DNA of 64,000 nt, from contig JANQFR010000082.1 of assembly GCA_028277745.1 (NCBI GenBank), positions 124,001 through 188,000 on the forward strand, written 5' to 3'. How positions within the stretch are numbered: the first letter of the stretch is position 1; each line of letters opens with the position of its first letter. The DNA comes from Phycisphaeraceae bacterium (GTDB lineage Bacteria; Planctomycetota; Phycisphaerae; Phycisphaerales; Phycisphaeraceae). Shown piece after piece: positions 3 through 54,314 of this stretch. Under the pieces are notes generated by a model. That model saw only the letters and a list, made by a program, of their open reading frames with translations, ran no database searches and was not told the DNA's origin. Position numbers and translations under genes: made by a program.

Positions 3-2672
3 CAGTTCCGCGATGAGTTCCGCGACTCCGACGACAACGCCAAGGCGATCCGCATCCCCGGTGCGGATGTGAAGCGGTTCCTCGATCGGCTTTACATGCT
101 GCCGCAGTTGCCGGAGATCGACCTGCCCGACGGCGTCGGCCGGGAGGAGGCGCATGTGCCGCCGGTGCCGCACCTGGACATCTTCAGCCCCGGCTCGCCC
201 GAGGCGGCGGACGTGCTGCCGGCGTCGAGCAAGAACCAGGTCGCCGCCCGGGTGTGGTTCGAATACGACGAGCGGCGGGTGGGCCCGACGCAGCCCGGAC
301 GGTTCGTGCCGGTCGCCCCGCCGACCGAGACGGCGCCCGACCCCGAGACTGAAACCGAGACCGCCGGACAGGTCGCCGAGGCGGCGGACGAACCCCGCGG
401 CGACGAGGCGCCCGCCGAGGAGCAAGCCGCGCCGGTCGCGACCGCGGTCGCGGAGGAGCAGCCCCTGCCCCGCGGCGTGCTGATGCGGCGCGACCGCCGC
501 GCCGAGCGTGAGGCCGTCGCCCAGCTCGCCCCGCTGGGCATGCGGCAGGTCGCCTCGGCCAGCGGCGACACCCTGCTGCTGCCCGCCAAGCAGATGCCCC
601 AGGCGATCAGCCACCTGCTCGCCCGAGGCTGGGCGGTCTCCGCGGACCAGAAGCTCGTCCGCGCCGCCGGCCCGCCGTCGCTCTCCATCGCCTCGGGCAT
701 CGACTGGTTCGAGCTGCGCGGCCAGCTCAAATACACCCGCGAGGACGGCCAGGTCGAGGCGGTCAGCCTGCCCCAGATCCTCACCGCCGCCCGTGCCGGA
801 CGCGCCATGATCCAGCTCGGCGACGGCTCGCAGGCCCTGCTGCCCCAGCAGTGGCTCGCCGAGCACGGCCTGCTCACCGCGCTGGGCGAGTCGCACGAGG
901 ATCACCTGCGCTTCAAGACCTCGCAGGCCGCCATGCTCGATGCGCTGATCGATGAGCACGAGCTGACCGACTTCGACCAGCGTTTCGCCGAGGCCCGCAC
1001 CCGGCTGCACCAGTTCGACGGCATCCGCCCGCTCGATCCTGCCGAGGACTTCCACGGATCGCTGCGGCAGTACCAGCGCGAGGGGCTGGGCTGGTTCGGG
1101 TTCCTGCGCTGGTTCGGCGTCGGGGGCATCCTGGCCGACGACATGGGGCTGGGCAAGACCATCCAGGTGCTGTCGATGCTCCAGGCGCGCAAGCGCGGCG
1201 TCAACGGCCACAGCGACGGCGTTGGGGGAGAAATGGCGGATGGAGGGGAAGAAGACAAGCCGGAAGATGGCGGCGAGGGCGATAACGCCCATCCGCCATC
1301 CGCCATCTCCCATCTGCCATCCCTGATCGTGGTGCCGCGGAGCGTGGTGTTCAACTGGGTGGATGAGGCGAGCAGGTTCACGCCAGACCTGCGGGTGCTG
1401 GCCTACGCCGGGGCGGACCGCGACGCGATGCGGGCGGAGTTCGGCGGTCACGACGTGATCGTCACCTCCTACGGCCTGCTCCGCCGGGACATCGCCGAGC
1501 TGAGCCACGAAGCGTTCGATTACGTGGTGCTCGACGAGGCCCAGGCGATCAAGAACCCCTCGTCGCAATCGGCCAAGGCCTGCCGGCTACTGCAGGCCCG
1601 GCACCGACTGGCGCTGACCGGCACGCCGATCGAGAATCACCTGGGCGACCTGTGGTCGATCTTCGAGTACCTCAACCCCGGCATGCTGGGCTCCAACGCC
1701 CGGTTCGCCGAGCTGCTCCGCGCGGGCTCGAGCATCGTTCCCCGGGGCATGGCGGGCGGCGGGAACGGGCAGACGCCGCTCGAGGATGCGAGCCAGACCG
1801 AGGCCGAATCCGACGCCGCCACCCAGGAACTACAGGCCACCCGCGCGGACACGCTCGCCCAGGTCGCCGCGTCCTTGCGGCCGTTTATCCTTCGGCGAAC
1901 CAAGAAGCAGGTGCTGACCGACCTGCCGCCCAAGACCGAGCAGACCATTGTCTGCGAGATGGAGCCGGCCCAGCGCAAGGTGTATGACGACCTGCGTCAG
2001 TACTACCGCGGGAGCCTGATGAGCCAGCTCGACGCCGTGGGCCCGGCAGGCGGCGGGGGGCTGGGCCGGGCGTCGTTCATGGTCCTCGAGGCCCTGCTCC
2101 GCCTCAGGCAGGCCGCCTGTCACCCCGCCCTGATCGACGGCCAGCGTGACGACCTGCCCTCGGCCAAGCTCGACGCCCTGCTCGAACGCGTCGCCGACAT
2201 CATCGAAGAGGGATCCAAGGCCCTGGTCTTCAGCCAGTTCACCTCGATGTTGGCCCTGGTCCGCCGCAAGCTCGACGAGCGCGGCATCCGGTACTGCTAT
2301 CTCGACGGTCAGACCCGCAATCGCCGCGAGGTCGTCGATCAGTTCCAGAACGACCCCAACGGGCAGGTCCCGCTGTTCCTGATCAGCCTCAAGACCGGCG
2401 GGCTGGGCCTGAACCTCACCGCCGCCGAGTACGTGTTCATCCTCGACCCGTGGTGGAACCCCGCGGTCGAGGCCCAGGCGATCGACCGGACCCATCGCAT
2501 CGGCCAAACCAAACCGGTGTTCGCCTACCGGCTGATCTGCGAGGACACCGTCGAGCAGCGGATCGCCGAGCTGCAGTCCCGCAAGCAGCAGCTGGCCGAC
2601 GCGATCGTCGGCGGGCAGGAAAACGTGCTCCGCTCGCTCACCCGTGACGACCTGGAGCAGTTGCTCAGCTAG
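3..2672 (+). CDS. SNF2/DEAD-like helicase, C-terminal part (truncated by window edge)
   Basis: ATP-dependent SNF2-family (Swi2/Snf2) DNA translocase. The frame is open from base 3 with no stop, so the true start lies to the left; the GTG at 69 is only an internal candidate. The first third is Pro/Ala/Glu-rich and poorly conserved. The helicase core follows: Walker A GLGKT at 1146-1160, DEAQ box near 1530, LTGTPIENH near 1615. The C-terminal lobe ends in GLGLNL and the RTHRIGQ box, which diagnose bacterial SNF2 proteins. About 38 residues rich in Gly, Glu, Asp and Pro separate motif I from the motif Ia strand (LIVVPRS); this insert is encoded by a heptamer repeat element (see 1225-1323). The frame stays open, so the protein is probably functional. 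Confidence 0.93.
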   Translation, partial: QFRDEFRDSDDNAKAIRIPGADVKRFLDRLYMLPQLPEIDLPDGVGREEAHVPPVPHLDIFSPGSPEAADVLPASSKNQVAARVWFEYDERRVGPTQPGRFVPVAPPTETAPDPETETETAGQVAEAADEPRGDEAPAEEQAAPVATAVAEEQPLPRGVLMRRDRRAEREAVAQLAPLGMRQVASASGDTLLLPAKQMPQAISHLLARGWAVSADQKLVRAAGPPSLSIASGIDWFELRGQLKYTREDGQVEAVSLPQILTAARAGRAMIQLGDGSQALLPQQWLAEHGLLTALGESHEDHLRFKTSQAAMLDALIDEHELTDFDQRFAEARTRLHQFDGIRPLDPAEDFHGSLRQYQREGLGWFGFLRWFGVGGILADDMGLGKTIQVLSMLQARKRGVNGHSDGVGGEMADGGEEDKPEDGGEGDNAHPPSAISHLPSLIVVPRSVVFNWVDEASRFTPDLRVLAYAGADRDAMRAEFGGHDVIVTSYGLLRRDIAELSHEAFDYVVLDEAQAIKNPSSQSAKACRLLQARHRLALTGTPIENHLGDLWSIFEYLNPGMLGSNARFAELLRAGSSIVPRGMAGGGNGQTPLEDASQTEAESDAATQELQATRADTLAQVAASLRPFILRRTKKQVLTDLPPKTEQTIVCEMEPAQRKVYDDLRQYYRGSLMSQLDAVGPAGGGGLGRASFMVLEALLRLRQAACHPALIDGQRDDLPSAKLDALLERVADIIEEGSKALVFSQFTSMLALVRRKLDERGIRYCYLDGQTRNRREVVDQFQNDPNGQVPLFLISLKTGGLGLNLTAAEYVFILDPWWNPAVEAQAIDRTHRIGQTKPVFAYRLICEDTVEQRIAELQSRKQQLADAIVGGQENVLRSLTRDDLEQLLS
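1225..1323. repeat. Inverted heptamer-repeat element inserted in frame in the SNF2 gene
   Basis: Bases 1289-1323 are five consecutive 7-base units of consensus CCATCYS (for example CCATCCG, CCATCTC, CCATCTG). Complementary units (ATGGCGG, GGATGGA) lie at 1228-1247, with a further AGATGGCGG near 1264-1272, giving an inverted arrangement around a roughly 40-base centre. The same CCATCTG unit recurs outside genes at 8319-8339. The translated insert interrupts the conserved spacing between helicase motifs I and Ia without breaking the frame. Confidence 0.8.
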
Positions 2673-6819: not shown

Positions 6820-8226
6820 TCAATATTGCCAGGTGCGCGGCCGGGGACGTTCGGACGCGATCAGCCGCACCGCGAGTCGGTGACGCATCGCGTGAAGCGT
6901 CGCGGCGTGAGCGGGGTCGTCCGCCACGTCCTGGTATTCGCCCCAAGGCGCCGCCAGGTCGTAGAGCCGCTCGCGCCCATCGCGGTGCAGGACGTAGCGG
7001 TGGGTCGACGACCGCAGAGCCTTCCAGTCGGCCTGCTGGATGAGCACCTCGTCCCGGCCGTCGAACGGCTCGCCCCGCACCGCGGCCGCGAACGACTCGC
7101 CCTGCAAAAACCCCGGCGCGGGCACGCCCGCCAGTTCGAGCAGCGTCGGCACGATGTCCACCGACTCCACCAGCCCCTCGCACACCCCGCCGACGCCCCG
7201 GTCCGGCCCCACGCCCCGCACCAGCAGCGGCACGCCCGCCGAGCAGTCCTCCGGGGGGCCCTTGCCCCACCGTGCAAAGTCACCCAGGTATTCGCCGTGA
7301 TCGGACGTGAACACCACGACCGTGTCGTCGGCCCGGCCGGTGGCGTCCAGCGCCTCGAGGATGCGCCCCACCCACGCGTCGACCTCCGACACCATCGCGT
7401 AGTACCCGTGCTTGGCGGCGCGCAACACCTCGTCGGTGTAGCCTTTCTCCAGCCGCGTTGCCTCGAACGACGACGGGTAGCTCGGGGTGGACAAGGCGTC
7501 GCGGTCGTACAGGTCGAAATAGCGCTGCGGCGCGAACAGCGGGGAGTGCGGGCTGTAAAACCCGGCGATGCAGAGGAACGGCCTCGAGGCGTCGGCGTGG
7601 GCCTGGAGGAAGTCGATGGTCCGCTGGCCGACAAACGCGGTGTGGGTCGCGTCGTCGCGCCCGGTGAAGACCTTCGGGGTCCACGCGTCCCAGGTATCGG
7701 GGTGCTTGACCGGGTCGTCGGGCCGCAGGACCTCGCGCCATTGCCGGGCGGCGGGGGGGAAGACGAACGCGGAGATGTGGTCGAGCTGATCGGGCATCTG
7801 CCGGCGGACATAGGCGCGGTAAGCGTCGTCATACGGCCCGGGCTCGTCGCTGATCTCCAGGTGATCGAATCCGTAAGTGGGGTGGACCTCGCGGTGGTCG
7901 CGGTTGGCGTGGTTGAGGAAGTGAAGCTTGCCGAGGTTGGCCGAGTAGTAGCCGTGGTTGCGGAGCAGGCGGGGGAGGGTGACCACGTCCTCGGGGACGG
8001 GCGTGCCGTTGGTGAAGATGCTCAGGGTGTGGGGGTACTGGCCGCTGAGCATGCTGACGCGCGAGGGCATGCAGACGGGGCAGTTGACGAAGTGGCGGGT
8101 GAACCGCACGCCCTGGGACGCGAGCCGATCGAGGTGGGGGGTGACGATCTCGGGGTTGCCGGCGCACCGCAGGGCGTCGTGCCGCTGCTGGTCGGTGTAG
8201 AGGATCAGGAGGTTGGGGGGATTCAT
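6820..8226 (-). CDS. Sulfatase (type I, Cys-type)
   Basis: 468-aa arylsulfatase-family enzyme that hydrolyses sulfate esters, probably from sulfated polysaccharides. The N-terminus is the metal-site strand NLLILYTDQQRHDALR. The sulfatase signature is CMPSR at residues 52-56, where Cys52 should be converted to formylglycine, followed by SGQYPHT. A second metal-ligand motif is TSDHGEYLGD. No signal peptide is visible, so it appears cytoplasmic, unlike many marine sulfatases. A TAGACT hexamer (8233-8238) sits 6 bases upstream of the ATG without a Shine-Dalgarno, and a heptamer repeat element lies immediately beyond it. No maturase gene is nearby. Confidence 0.95.
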   Translation of the reverse strand: MNPPNLLILYTDQQRHDALRCAGNPEIVTPHLDRLASQGVRFTRHFVNCPVCMPSRVSMLSGQYPHTLSIFTNGTPVPEDVVTLPRLLRNHGYYSANLGKLHFLNHANRDHREVHPTYGFDHLEISDEPGPYDDAYRAYVRRQMPDQLDHISAFVFPPAARQWREVLRPDDPVKHPDTWDAWTPKVFTGRDDATHTAFVGQRTIDFLQAHADASRPFLCIAGFYSPHSPLFAPQRYFDLYDRDALSTPSYPSSFEATRLEKGYTDEVLRAAKHGYYAMVSEVDAWVGRILEALDATGRADDTVVVFTSDHGEYLGDFARWGKGPPEDCSAGVPLLVRGVGPDRGVGGVCEGLVESVDIVPTLLELAGVPAPGFLQGESFAAAVRGEPFDGRDEVLIQQADWKALRSSTHRYVLHRDGRERLYDLAAPWGEYQDVADDPAHAATLHAMRHRLAVRLIASERPRPRTWQY

Positions 8227-8242
8227 GGCCCAAGTCTATAAA

Positions 8243-8341
8243 AGATGGCAGATGTCAGGTGGATGATGGCAGATGGGATGGGAGCGGGAGGACGCATGAT
8301 CTGGTGGCCCCCTCCGATCCATCTGCCATCTGCCATGTGCA
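8243..8341. repeat. Inverted heptamer-repeat element between sulfatase and nuoA
   Basis: The left arm (8243-8282) contains AGATGGCAGATG and ATGATGGCAGATGGGATGGG. The right arm (8319-8339) is three consecutive heptamers CCATCTG, CCATCTG and CCATGTG. The arms are complementary around a centre of about 35 bases with no coding potential. The same heptamer makes up the insertion in the SNF2 gene. Both flanking genes read outward from it. Confidence 0.8.
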
Positions 8342-8372
8342 TGGCGGGCGATCGGCCGGTACACTGGCCGAC

Positions 8373-8786
8373 ATGATCCCCACGCTCGCAGCCGAGTTCA
8401 ATCATTACGCCGCGGTGGGCGTGCTGCTGCTGATGGCCATCGTCTTCGGGGTGATGAACGTGATGGCGTCGACGAAGCTGCTGGGCCCCAAGCGCGACGG
8501 CGCGATCAAGGGCACCACCTACGAATCGGGCATGAATCCGGTCGGGACCGCCCGACGGCGGTTCAACGTGCGGTTCTACATCGTCGCGATGACGTTCCTG
8601 CTTTTCGACGTGGAGATCGTCTTCCTCTACCCGTGGGCCGTCACCTTCCCCAGCCTCAACCCCGAGCCGGGCTCGGCCGGGGCCGAGTTGTCGCCGCTGT
8701 TTCTGGGGCGGATGCTCTTTTTCGTCATCACGACGATCATCGCCTTCCTCTACGCCTTCCGCAAAGGCGTGTTCCGCTACGACTGA
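8373..8786 (+). CDS. nuoA: NADH-quinone oxidoreductase subunit A
   Basis: Small membrane subunit of respiratory complex I (137 aa). Three transmembrane segments are visible: residues about 10-30, 65-90 and 110-130. The conserved loop between the first two includes YESGMNPVGTARRRFNVRFY, the family signature, followed by LLFDVEIVFLYPWA. An upstream in-frame extension to 8259 is rejected because it reads through the heptamer repeat. TACACT (8359-8364) lies 8 bases before this ATG. No other nuo gene follows; the next gene is a convergent LacI regulator, so complex I genes are scattered in this genome or this is a stray copy. Confidence 0.93.
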   Translation: MIPTLAAEFNHYAAVGVLLLMAIVFGVMNVMASTKLLGPKRDGAIKGTTYESGMNPVGTARRRFNVRFYIVAMTFLLFDVEIVFLYPWAVTFPSLNPEPGSAGAELSPLFLGRMLFFVITTIIAFLYAFRKGVFRYD

Positions 8787-52940: not shown

Positions 52941-52944
52941 GGCG

Positions 52945-52977
52945 TAGGCGGTAGGGGTTAGGCGCTAGGGCCTAGGG
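52945..52977. repeat. Left inverted heptamer repeat
   Basis: Read on the minus strand it is a run of units CCCTAGG, CCCTAGC, GCCTAAC and CCCTACC with a partial unit at the end. It contains the stop codon of the four-helix-bundle gene (52972-52974) and ends 4 bases before the cysNC start codon. Confidence 0.85.
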
Positions 52978-53325
52978 GGTGGATTCCGGGTTCGGGCGGC
53001 CGACTTTTTGGATCAAGCGGGTGAGCATTTTGCCGACTTCCTGAGTCAACTCCCACGCGGGGAGGGCGGCTTCACGGTTCAAGCGTTGGACGCGGACGGC
53101 AGCGATCAGTTGAGTTTCTAGACCGGCGAGGGAGCCCCGGGCGTAAGACAAGTGCTTGAGGTAGTCGCCGGTATGGCTTCGGCCATAACCTTCGGCGATA
53201 TTGGACGCCACCGATACTGCCGCCCGCTGCATCTGCGAAGTCAGCCCAAAGCGCTCAGAATCCGACAACCGTTCGGTCAATAAGTACACGGCTTCAATCA
53301 ACTCCATCGCTCGCTGCCAAACCAC
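52972..53325 (-). CDS. Four-helix-bundle protein (23S rRNA intervening-sequence protein/Avd-like family)
   Basis: 117 aa. Family marks: VVWQRAMELIEAVYLLTERL, RFGLTSQMQRAAVSVASNIA, then EGYGR and YLKHLSYARGSLAGLETQL; four amphipathic helices. The family includes proteins encoded in 23S rRNA insertions and the Avd accessory proteins of diversity-generating retroelements; no reverse transcriptase or template repeat is present here. GTG 53325 is the only normal start, but the frame stays open upstream to 53390, inside the repeat, and encodes the family-like ARGYRGLVVW, so translation may begin earlier at a rare codon. Its TAG stop lies in the left repeat. Confidence 0.88.
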   Translation of the reverse strand: MVWQRAMELIEAVYLLTERLSDSERFGLTSQMQRAAVSVASNIAEGYGRSHTGDYLKHLSYARGSLAGLETQLIAAVRVQRLNREAALPAWELTQEVGKMLTRLIQKVGRPNPESTP

Positions 53326-53372
53326 GAGCCCCCGATACCCACGAGCGTCCCAATGAATGTCTCCGATTTCTT

Positions 53373-53405
53373 CCCTAGACCCTAGCGCCTAACCCCTAGC
53401 GCCTA
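53373..53405. repeat. Right inverted heptamer repeat
   Basis: Plus strand units CCCTAGA, CCCTAGC, GCCTAAC and CCCTAGC, then GCCTA. Its last three bases are the TAG stop of cysD read on the minus strand (53403-53405). It is the inverted partner of 52945-52977. Confidence 0.85.
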
Positions 53406-54314
53406 GTAATACCCCTGCTTCTTCTTCTCCTCCATCGACGCGCCGGGGTCCTGGTCGATCACGCGGCCTTCGCGCTCGGAGCGGGTCGCCAGCAACATCT
53501 CCTGAATGATCTCGGGGAGGGTGGCTGCGCGGGACTCGGTCGCGCCTGAGAGCGGGTAGTCGCCCAGCGTGCGGAACCGGACCCACTTCCGGCTCGCAGT
53601 GCGACGCAAGGTTTCGGGCATACGGTCGTCATCCACCGCGATCAGCTGCCCCTCGTGCTCGACCACGTCGCGCTGCGTCGCGTAGTAGATCGGGACGATC
53701 GGGATCTGCTCCAGGTGGATGTACTGCCAGATGTCCAGCTCGGTCCAGTTGGAAAGAGGGAACGCCCGGATCTGCTCGCCCTTCTCGAGGGCGCCGTTGT
53801 AGAGGTTCCAAAGCTCAGGGCGCTGATTCTTGGGGTCCCACTGATGGTTCTTGTCGCGGAAGGAGTAGACGCGCTCCTTGGCGCGAGACTTTTCCTCGTC
53901 CCGTCGGCCCCCGCCGAACGCGGCGTCGAACCGGTACTTATCGAGGGCCTGGCGCAGGGCGCCGAGATTCATCACGTCCGTGAAACGCTTCGAGCCGTGG
54001 AGGAAGGGATCGATCCCTTCCTTGAGGCCTTCCTCGTTGATGTAGACCAGGCACTCCAGCCCCAACTCGCCGACGATGTAATCATCACGGAAGGCGTACA
54101 TGGACTGGAAGTTCCAGGTCGTGTCGATGTGCAGCAGGGGAAACGGCGGCTTCCCGGGATGGAACGCCTTGCGGGCCAGGTGGAGCATCACGCACGAGTC
54201 TTTGCCGATGGAGAACAGCATCACCGGCTTGTCAAACTCGGCGACGACCTCACGGATGATATGGATCGACTCGGCTTCGAGCTGTTTCAGGTGGGTCAGG
54301 GTATGAGGCTTCAC
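53403..54314 (-). CDS. cysD: Sulfate adenylyltransferase small subunit
   Basis: 303 aa (E. coli CysD 302). Transfers AMP to sulfate to form APS, powered by GTP hydrolysis in CysN. N-terminal [22 protein letters not shown]-loop [17 protein letters not shown], then [20 protein letters not shown] and the C-terminal [17 protein letters not shown] are diagnostic. GTG 54314 is chosen because it gives the normal length and GGAG lies upstream. The C-terminus ends [10 protein letters not shown]; the stop comes from the adjoining inverted repeat, which may have replaced the original stop. Confidence 0.95.

What the first reader, a model, noticed from the sequence alone, without database searches (positions are those of the whole stretch)
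8243..8341. Gene-free heptamer-repeat element between a sulfatase and nuoA
It shares its CCATCTG unit with the SNF2 insertion and has the same inverted layout with a 35-base non-coding centre. It sits directly upstream of the -10-like hexamers of two divergent genes (TAGACT at 8233-8238 and TACACT at 8359-8364), so it occupies the place of the -35 regions and could set or silence their expression.
Basis: partly seen in the sequence, partly recalled or inferred. Interest (0 to 1): 0.6.

Follow-up and report, generated by a model that had tools for sequence, protein, structure and literature searches.

The report
Gene-free copy of repeat-armed mobile element
The 99-base patch between a sulfatase gene and nuoA is one of at least 47 scattered, gene-less copies of a small mobile DNA element whose ends are mirror-image runs of a 7-letter repeat; fuller relatives with the same kind of ends carry a 'four-helix-bundle' gene so far best known from insertions in ribosomal RNA genes.

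Summary
In detail: window 8243-8341 has two inverted arms of degenerate GATGGCA/TGCCATC heptamers around a 40-nt centre. It folds better than all 200 shuffles. The 5.1-Mb Phycisphaeraceae genome holds 144 matches to the three-unit pattern (reversed control 0), in about 47 arrays, many two-armed.

Following the repeat led to its source. One own-genome copy with the same arms, including the variant heptamer ATGTGAG, encloses a PF05635 gene (23S rRNA intervening-sequence protein, IVP). IVP genes in general are bracketed by inverted arrays of 7-9-nt repeats. The unit differs between elements, but the two arms of one element match each other: 34/43 Planctomycetota loci, 7/8 plasmid loci and 4/5 viral-contig loci, against 0/26 control genes. 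In a congener, four of four IVP elements are missing at the syntenic site, one of them a clean empty site. Arm sequence tracks the IVP tree (Mantel p = 0.001).

So the window feature is most likely a gene-free, MITE-like derivative of an IVP element. The regulatory reading has no support. How these elements move is unknown. I found no published link between IVP genes and such arms, but only open-access papers could be searched.

The parts
8243..8276 (+). Left arm: degenerate ATGGCAG heptamers, with ATGTCAG at the place of the family's ATGTGAG variant
8277..8316 (.). Gene-free centre (40 nt)
8308..8322 (-). Subterminal motif ATGGATCGGAGGGGG next to the right arm; ATGGRYCGGA is shared by 12 of 48 arrays, and its like forms the ribosome-binding region of the IVP gene in G242 (L225: ATGGATCGGAAGGGATG)
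8317..8336 (-). Right arm: inverted ATGGCAG heptamers (ATCCATCTGCCATCTGCCAT on +)
6820..8226 (-). Sulfatase gene (PF00884); start codon 17 nt from the element; host neighbour, not part of the element
8373..8786 (+). nuoA (PF00507); start codon 36 nt from the right arm; host neighbour, not part of the element
1232..1327 (.). Second gene-free copy, in frame in a linker of a SNF2-family gene; most relatives lack it, two other genera have an inverted repeat element of another unit at the same place
52941..53410 (.). Gene-carrying relative in the same window: inverted arms (GCGTAGGCGGTAGGGG... / CCCTAGACCCTAGCGCCTAACCCC...) around an IVP gene, between the two adenylylsulfate-synthesis genes
52972..53325 (-). 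IVP (PF05635, 23S_rRNA_IVP) open reading frame, 117 aa

Best explanation
The feature is a gene-free, non-autonomous copy of a short mobile element. The full element is about 400-700 bp (median 463). It ends in inverted arrays of a 7-9-nt tandem repeat that can pair into a hairpin, and it carries one small gene, most often the IVP four-helix-bundle protein (PF05635). The repeat unit is free to vary between lineages, but the two arms of one element stay complementary. In this genome one ATGGCAG element (C28) still carries the gene; about 46 further copies lack it and hold arms plus a short centre, or one arm only. Shown: shared arms and variant heptamer, the general IVP-arm association, presence/absence at syntenic sites, and co-inheritance of arm sequence and IVP. 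Inferred: that gene-free copies arose by internal deletion and were multiplied in trans, that the hairpin (DNA or RNA) is what the machinery recognises, and that the window copy is a near-neutral insertion between two divergent genes. Unknown: the enzyme that moves it.
For: 144 pattern matches against 0 for the control in the own genome; consensus arms with the ATGTGAG variant at a set place; the IVP at C28:22653 is flanked by the same arms. 34/43 IVP loci have inverted arms, 0/26 control genes, 1.2% of mispaired flanks; 7/8 plasmid loci score 16 or more, the eighth 15.5, and 4/5 viral contigs, the fifth 15.0. Four of four G242 IVP elements are missing at the syntenic place in congener G399, one clean empty site. 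Arm sequence follows the IVP tree, Mantel p = 0.001; the sister IVPs L237/L238 carry ATGGCGG/ATGGCAG arms and each genome's gene-free copies use the same unit. Subterminal motif shared. Three other two-armed copies fold at z -6.4 to -9.4.
Against: No empty site for the window copy itself: none of the searched relatives has the sulfatase-nuoA junction. No IVP remnant is left in gene-free copies except the subterminal motif. Target-site duplications were not seen, but the congener is too diverged (79-91% identical over these flanks) to rule them out. At two of four G242 sites and at the SNF2 linker other genomes carry elements with other units at the same place, which simple independent insertion does not explain well. 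Absence in G399 could be loss instead of gain in G242. Nine of 43 IVP loci fall below the arm threshold.
Confidence: 0.82

Rival explanations
1. A simple sequence repeat born in place by replication slippage, like the heptameric (G-quadruplex) repeats reported in Xanthomonas and Nostoc; the inverted arms are incidental.
For: Heptamers are over-represented in many bacteria and inverted pairs were seen before (PMC4692102). Some arrays here are long and one-armed, so array length probably does change by slippage.
Against: The same variant heptamer sits at the same place in many copies, two-armed layout is frequent, arms of unrelated units bracket one protein family in 34/43 loci, and an empty site exists.
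Confidence: 0.08
2. A conserved regulatory site (protein-binding or promoter element) of the divergent sulfatase/nuoA genes.
For: It fills the gap between two divergent genes, 17 and 36 nt from the start codons.
Against: No relative has it upstream of nuoA; no promoter pair; sister copies lie inside genes and after stop codons of unrelated genes.
Confidence: 0.03
3. A REP/REPIN-type palindrome moved by a RAYT (Y1 transposase).
For: It is intergenic, palindromic, dispersed, and such copies often adjoin a separate GTTTAGCGCCGGCCCG...CTAAAC palindrome.
Against: Arms are tandem heptamers, not a single REP hairpin; the genome has only one partial Y1_Tnp match, and G012, with at least 14 IVP genes, only one weak match. 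The IVP elements measured are too short (401-694 bp) to hold a Y1 gene beside the IVP.
Confidence: 0.04

Closest known systems
23S rRNA intervening sequences (IVS) with the IVP/S23p ORF (Coxiella, Leptospira)
   Same: Same protein family (own IVP hits PDB 2gsc at 1.5e-29), same size (428-444 nt) and layout: terminal inverted repeats around one ORF (PMC4990558).
   Different: Those lie in 23S rRNA and are described there with a plain 28-bp terminal stem; these lie between or in protein genes, have tandem-repeat arms with a unit that differs per element, and have gene-free copies.
Heptameric repeats GGGNATC (Xanthomonas, Nostoc) and TAACTGA (Beggiatoaceae, Cyanobacteria)
   Same: Dispersed intergenic heptamer arrays; 70-75 inverted pairs in Xanthomonas (PMC4692102); TAACTGA suspected to be mobile (PMC4679880).
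   Different: No cargo gene or insertion mechanism is linked to them in those papers; the link here is to IVP genes. That the Xanthomonas and Nostoc arrays belong to the same system is a prediction.
MITEs
   Same: Short, non-coding, terminal inverted repeats, many copies, relatives with a gene.
   Different: The gene-carrying relative encodes no known transposase, arms are tandem repeats, and no target-site duplication was seen.
Rickettsia palindromic elements
   Same: Palindromic, some copies in frame inside genes (from own knowledge).
   Different: No sequence relation tested; heptamer arms and IVP relatives are not features I know of there.
DGR accessory protein Avd
   Same: PF05635 and Avd appear homologous (PMC10053308), so the IVP could be a nucleic-acid-binding helper.
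   Different: Genome G012 with at least 14 IVP genes has no reverse transcriptase match.

Membership tests
IVP elements (tandem-repeat-armed, outside rRNA) | Inverted arms of a short tandem repeat | tested here: met
IVP elements (tandem-repeat-armed, outside rRNA) | Same arms as a gene-carrying copy in the genome | tested here: met
   C28 copy L238
IVP elements (tandem-repeat-armed, outside rRNA) | Carries the PF05635 gene | tested here: not met
   the window copy is gene-free; filed as a derivative, not a full member
23S rRNA IVS | Located in a 23S rRNA gene | tested here: not met
   intergenic; no Rfam match in the window
23S rRNA IVS | Stem cut by RNase III | not testable with these tools
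   needs RNA work
MITE | Short, non-coding, terminal inverted repeats, multicopy | tested here: met
MITE | Target-site duplication | tested here: inconclusive
   none apparent at the four sites, congener too diverged
MITE | Mobilised by a known transposase with matching ends | tested here: not met
   the gene between matching ends is an IVP, not a transposase
REP/REPIN | Resident RAYT with matching REP flanks | tested here: inconclusive
   one partial Y1_Tnp match in the genome, flanks not examined
GGGNATC G-quadruplex heptamers | Unit GGGNATC with three-G tracts | tested here: not met
   unit here is GATGGCA with two-G tracts

The most novel reading that the evidence does not exclude
A widespread, undescribed superfamily of minimal bacterial mobile elements is defined by self-complementary tandem-repeat arms of free sequence around one small gene (IVP, or the GxxExxY/PDDEXK_3 protein, 20 of 24 loci of which also have inverted flanks), with swarms of gene-free copies. 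It would account for the unexplained heptamer repeats of Xanthomonas, Nostoc and others, and 23S rRNA intervening sequences would be the rRNA-dwelling branch of it.
Probability: 0.45. Interest if true: 0.9.

Novelty: new variant of a known kind. Interest (0 to 1): 0.74.

Why it matters
'Four helix bundle protein' genes are common in bacterial annotation and have no known function; heptameric repeats have been catalogued without an origin; and whether 23S rRNA intervening sequences are mobile has been open since the 1990s (PMC4990558). Tying the three together turns each into a testable question: the arms are the ends of the element, the protein is the candidate mobility or RNA-handling factor, and gene-free copies are its passengers.

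Tried and rejected
Rfam scan of the window: nothing. Direct empty-site test for the window copy: impossible, none of the searched relatives has the sulfatase next to nuoA. Reverse-transcriptase dependence: G012 has at least 14 IVP genes and no PF00078 match, so a resident one does not look required. RAYT dependence: one partial match here. IVP remnants inside gene-free copies: none convincing by tblastn. Promoter and terminator scan: nothing. Repeat period against the IVP tree: 7 changes for 10 tips with 8/9-nt units, uninformative. Literature searches for a link between IVP or GxxExxY genes and flanking repeats found none; only open-access papers are held.

Full report
What is there. Window 8243-8341 holds a left arm (8243-8276) and a right arm (8317-8336) of degenerate GATGGCA heptamers in inverted orientation, with a 40-nt centre. 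As RNA the stretch folds at -51.1 kcal/mol, better than all 200 shuffles, and its best inverted match exceeds all 300 random stretches of the window. It lies 17 nt from the start codon of a sulfatase gene and 36 nt from that of nuoA.

A dispersed family. The genome is a Phycisphaeraceae assembly of 5.1 Mb with no congener held. The three-unit pattern has 144 matches, the reversed control none. Fetched stretches show 48 arrays, one of which (L094:15185, a run inside a gene with other units) is probably chance. About a third are two-armed. The arms share a layout, GA-ATGGCAG-ATGTGAG-ATGGCAG-ATGG, with the odd heptamer ATGTGAG at a set place, and 12 of 48 share the subterminal ATGGRYCGGA, which occurs only 19 times in the 657 kb. 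That points to copying of a whole element rather than slippage at each site. Copies fall in gaps between co-directional, divergent and convergent genes (27, 7, 5) in background proportions (257, 82, 61), and in five genes; in 23 of 26 co-directional gaps that are not ties they lie nearer the upstream stop codon than the next start (counted by hand, with a simple gene finder of my own).

The gene that belongs to the arms. In G242, another genus of the family with ATGGCGG arrays, one element encloses a PF05635 gene. In the window's own genome the IVP at C28:22653 is enclosed by ATGGCAG/ATGTGAG arms, the arms of the window copy. Most other IVP genes of both genomes are bracketed too, each by its own unit (GTAGTCA, AAAGTCG, GCAGGAAA and so on), among them the window's own IVP at 52972-53325, between the two adenylylsulfate-synthesis genes.

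Test on a larger set. For 43 IVP loci across Planctomycetota I aligned the left 250-nt flank to the reverse complement of the right one. 34 scored 16 or more, 0 of 26 nuoA control loci did, and 1.2% of mispaired IVP flanks did. On plasmids of Cyanobacteria and a Gemmatimonadota 7 of 8 reach 16 and the other 15.5; on IMG/VR contigs 4 of 5 reach 16 and the other 15.0. Periods are mostly 7, with some 8 and 9. Elements with clear arms span 401-694 bp, median 463, with a purine-rich left arm on the gene's sense strand. Since the arms of one element match each other but rarely those of other elements, the pairing itself seems to be kept. The IVP tree and arm sequence go together (Mantel p = 0.001), and the IVPs with ATGGCGG and ATGGCAG arms are sisters. 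The larger set was ranked by family score, so it is a sample of the best matches, not a random one.

Insertion. Four G242 IVP elements were looked up in congener G399, which has no PF05635 match over the cut-off. All four flanks are syntenic and all four genes are missing. At the hisG-like site the two G399 genes meet with only a few bases between the aligned ends, a clean empty site; by my reading of the G242 sequence the inserted arm now supplies the first codons of that gene. At two other sites G399 has a gene-free inverted repeat element of its own, with another unit. The SNF2 linker of the window (1232-1327) repeats this: most relatives have nothing, while G185 and G408 have inverted repeat elements of other units in the same place. 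Hot spots or turnover of the unit could explain this; I cannot tell which.

How it may work. Shown: an element that is gained or lost at syntenic sites, with arms and gene inherited together. Inferred: the hairpin is the recognised form, and gene-free copies are moved in trans. The protein family is related to Avd of diversity-generating retroelements (PMC10053308), but G012, with at least 14 IVP genes, has no reverse transcriptase match and only one weak Y1 transposase match, so neither seems to be needed in the same genome. For the window copy I see no evidence of function; it is most simply an insertion between two genes.

Known relatives. Coxiella's 23S rRNA IVS has the same protein family, size and inverted ends (PMC4990558). 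Heptameric repeats, including inverted pairs, are known from Xanthomonas and Nostoc (PMC4692102) and suspected to be mobile in Beggiatoaceae (PMC4679880), without a gene or mechanism. The link between the two is, as far as the open-access library shows, new. GxxExxY genes (PF13366) also have inverted flanks in 20 of 24 loci, but their motif ACCACAGAG is shared between genomes and 11% of mispaired flanks also pass, so this is weaker.

Noticed in passing
window 52941-53410: IVP gene with inverted GTAGGCG/CTAGGCG-type arms between the two adenylylsulfate-synthesis genes: the gene-carrying form of the same kind of element.
   Followed up: yes
window 1232-1327; L319, L322: The SNF2 linker holds inverted repeat elements of different units in three genera, at the same place, and nothing in most relatives.
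   Followed up: partly
L280-L309: GxxExxY (PF13366) genes in Planctomycetota have inverted flanks of ACCACAGAGRCACAGAG type in 20 of 24 loci.
   Followed up: partly
L313, L317, L311: On cyanobacterial plasmids IVP elements sit between cas6 and cas4 (twice) and between the two ribonucleotide reductase subunit genes.
   Followed up: no
L063, L069, L071, L083, L095: A second palindrome, GTTTAGCGCCGGCCCGC...GCTAAAC, often adjoins or fills the centre of the heptamer elements; REP-like, not studied.
   Followed up: no
L097 8826-8957 and 9918-10049: Two elements 1.1 kb apart share their centre in opposite orientation, a local inverted duplication.
   Followed up: no
L070 1-78, L079 7159-7232, L084 22-95, L089 10630-10710: Four contig ends lie in or next to long perfect ATGGCAG arrays, so the assembly breaks there and array lengths may be underestimated.
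   Followed up: no
window 8259-8786: The nuoA frame is open upstream through most of the element (GTG at 8259), as at the hisG-like gene of G242 where the arm appears to have become the N-terminus.
   Followed up: no
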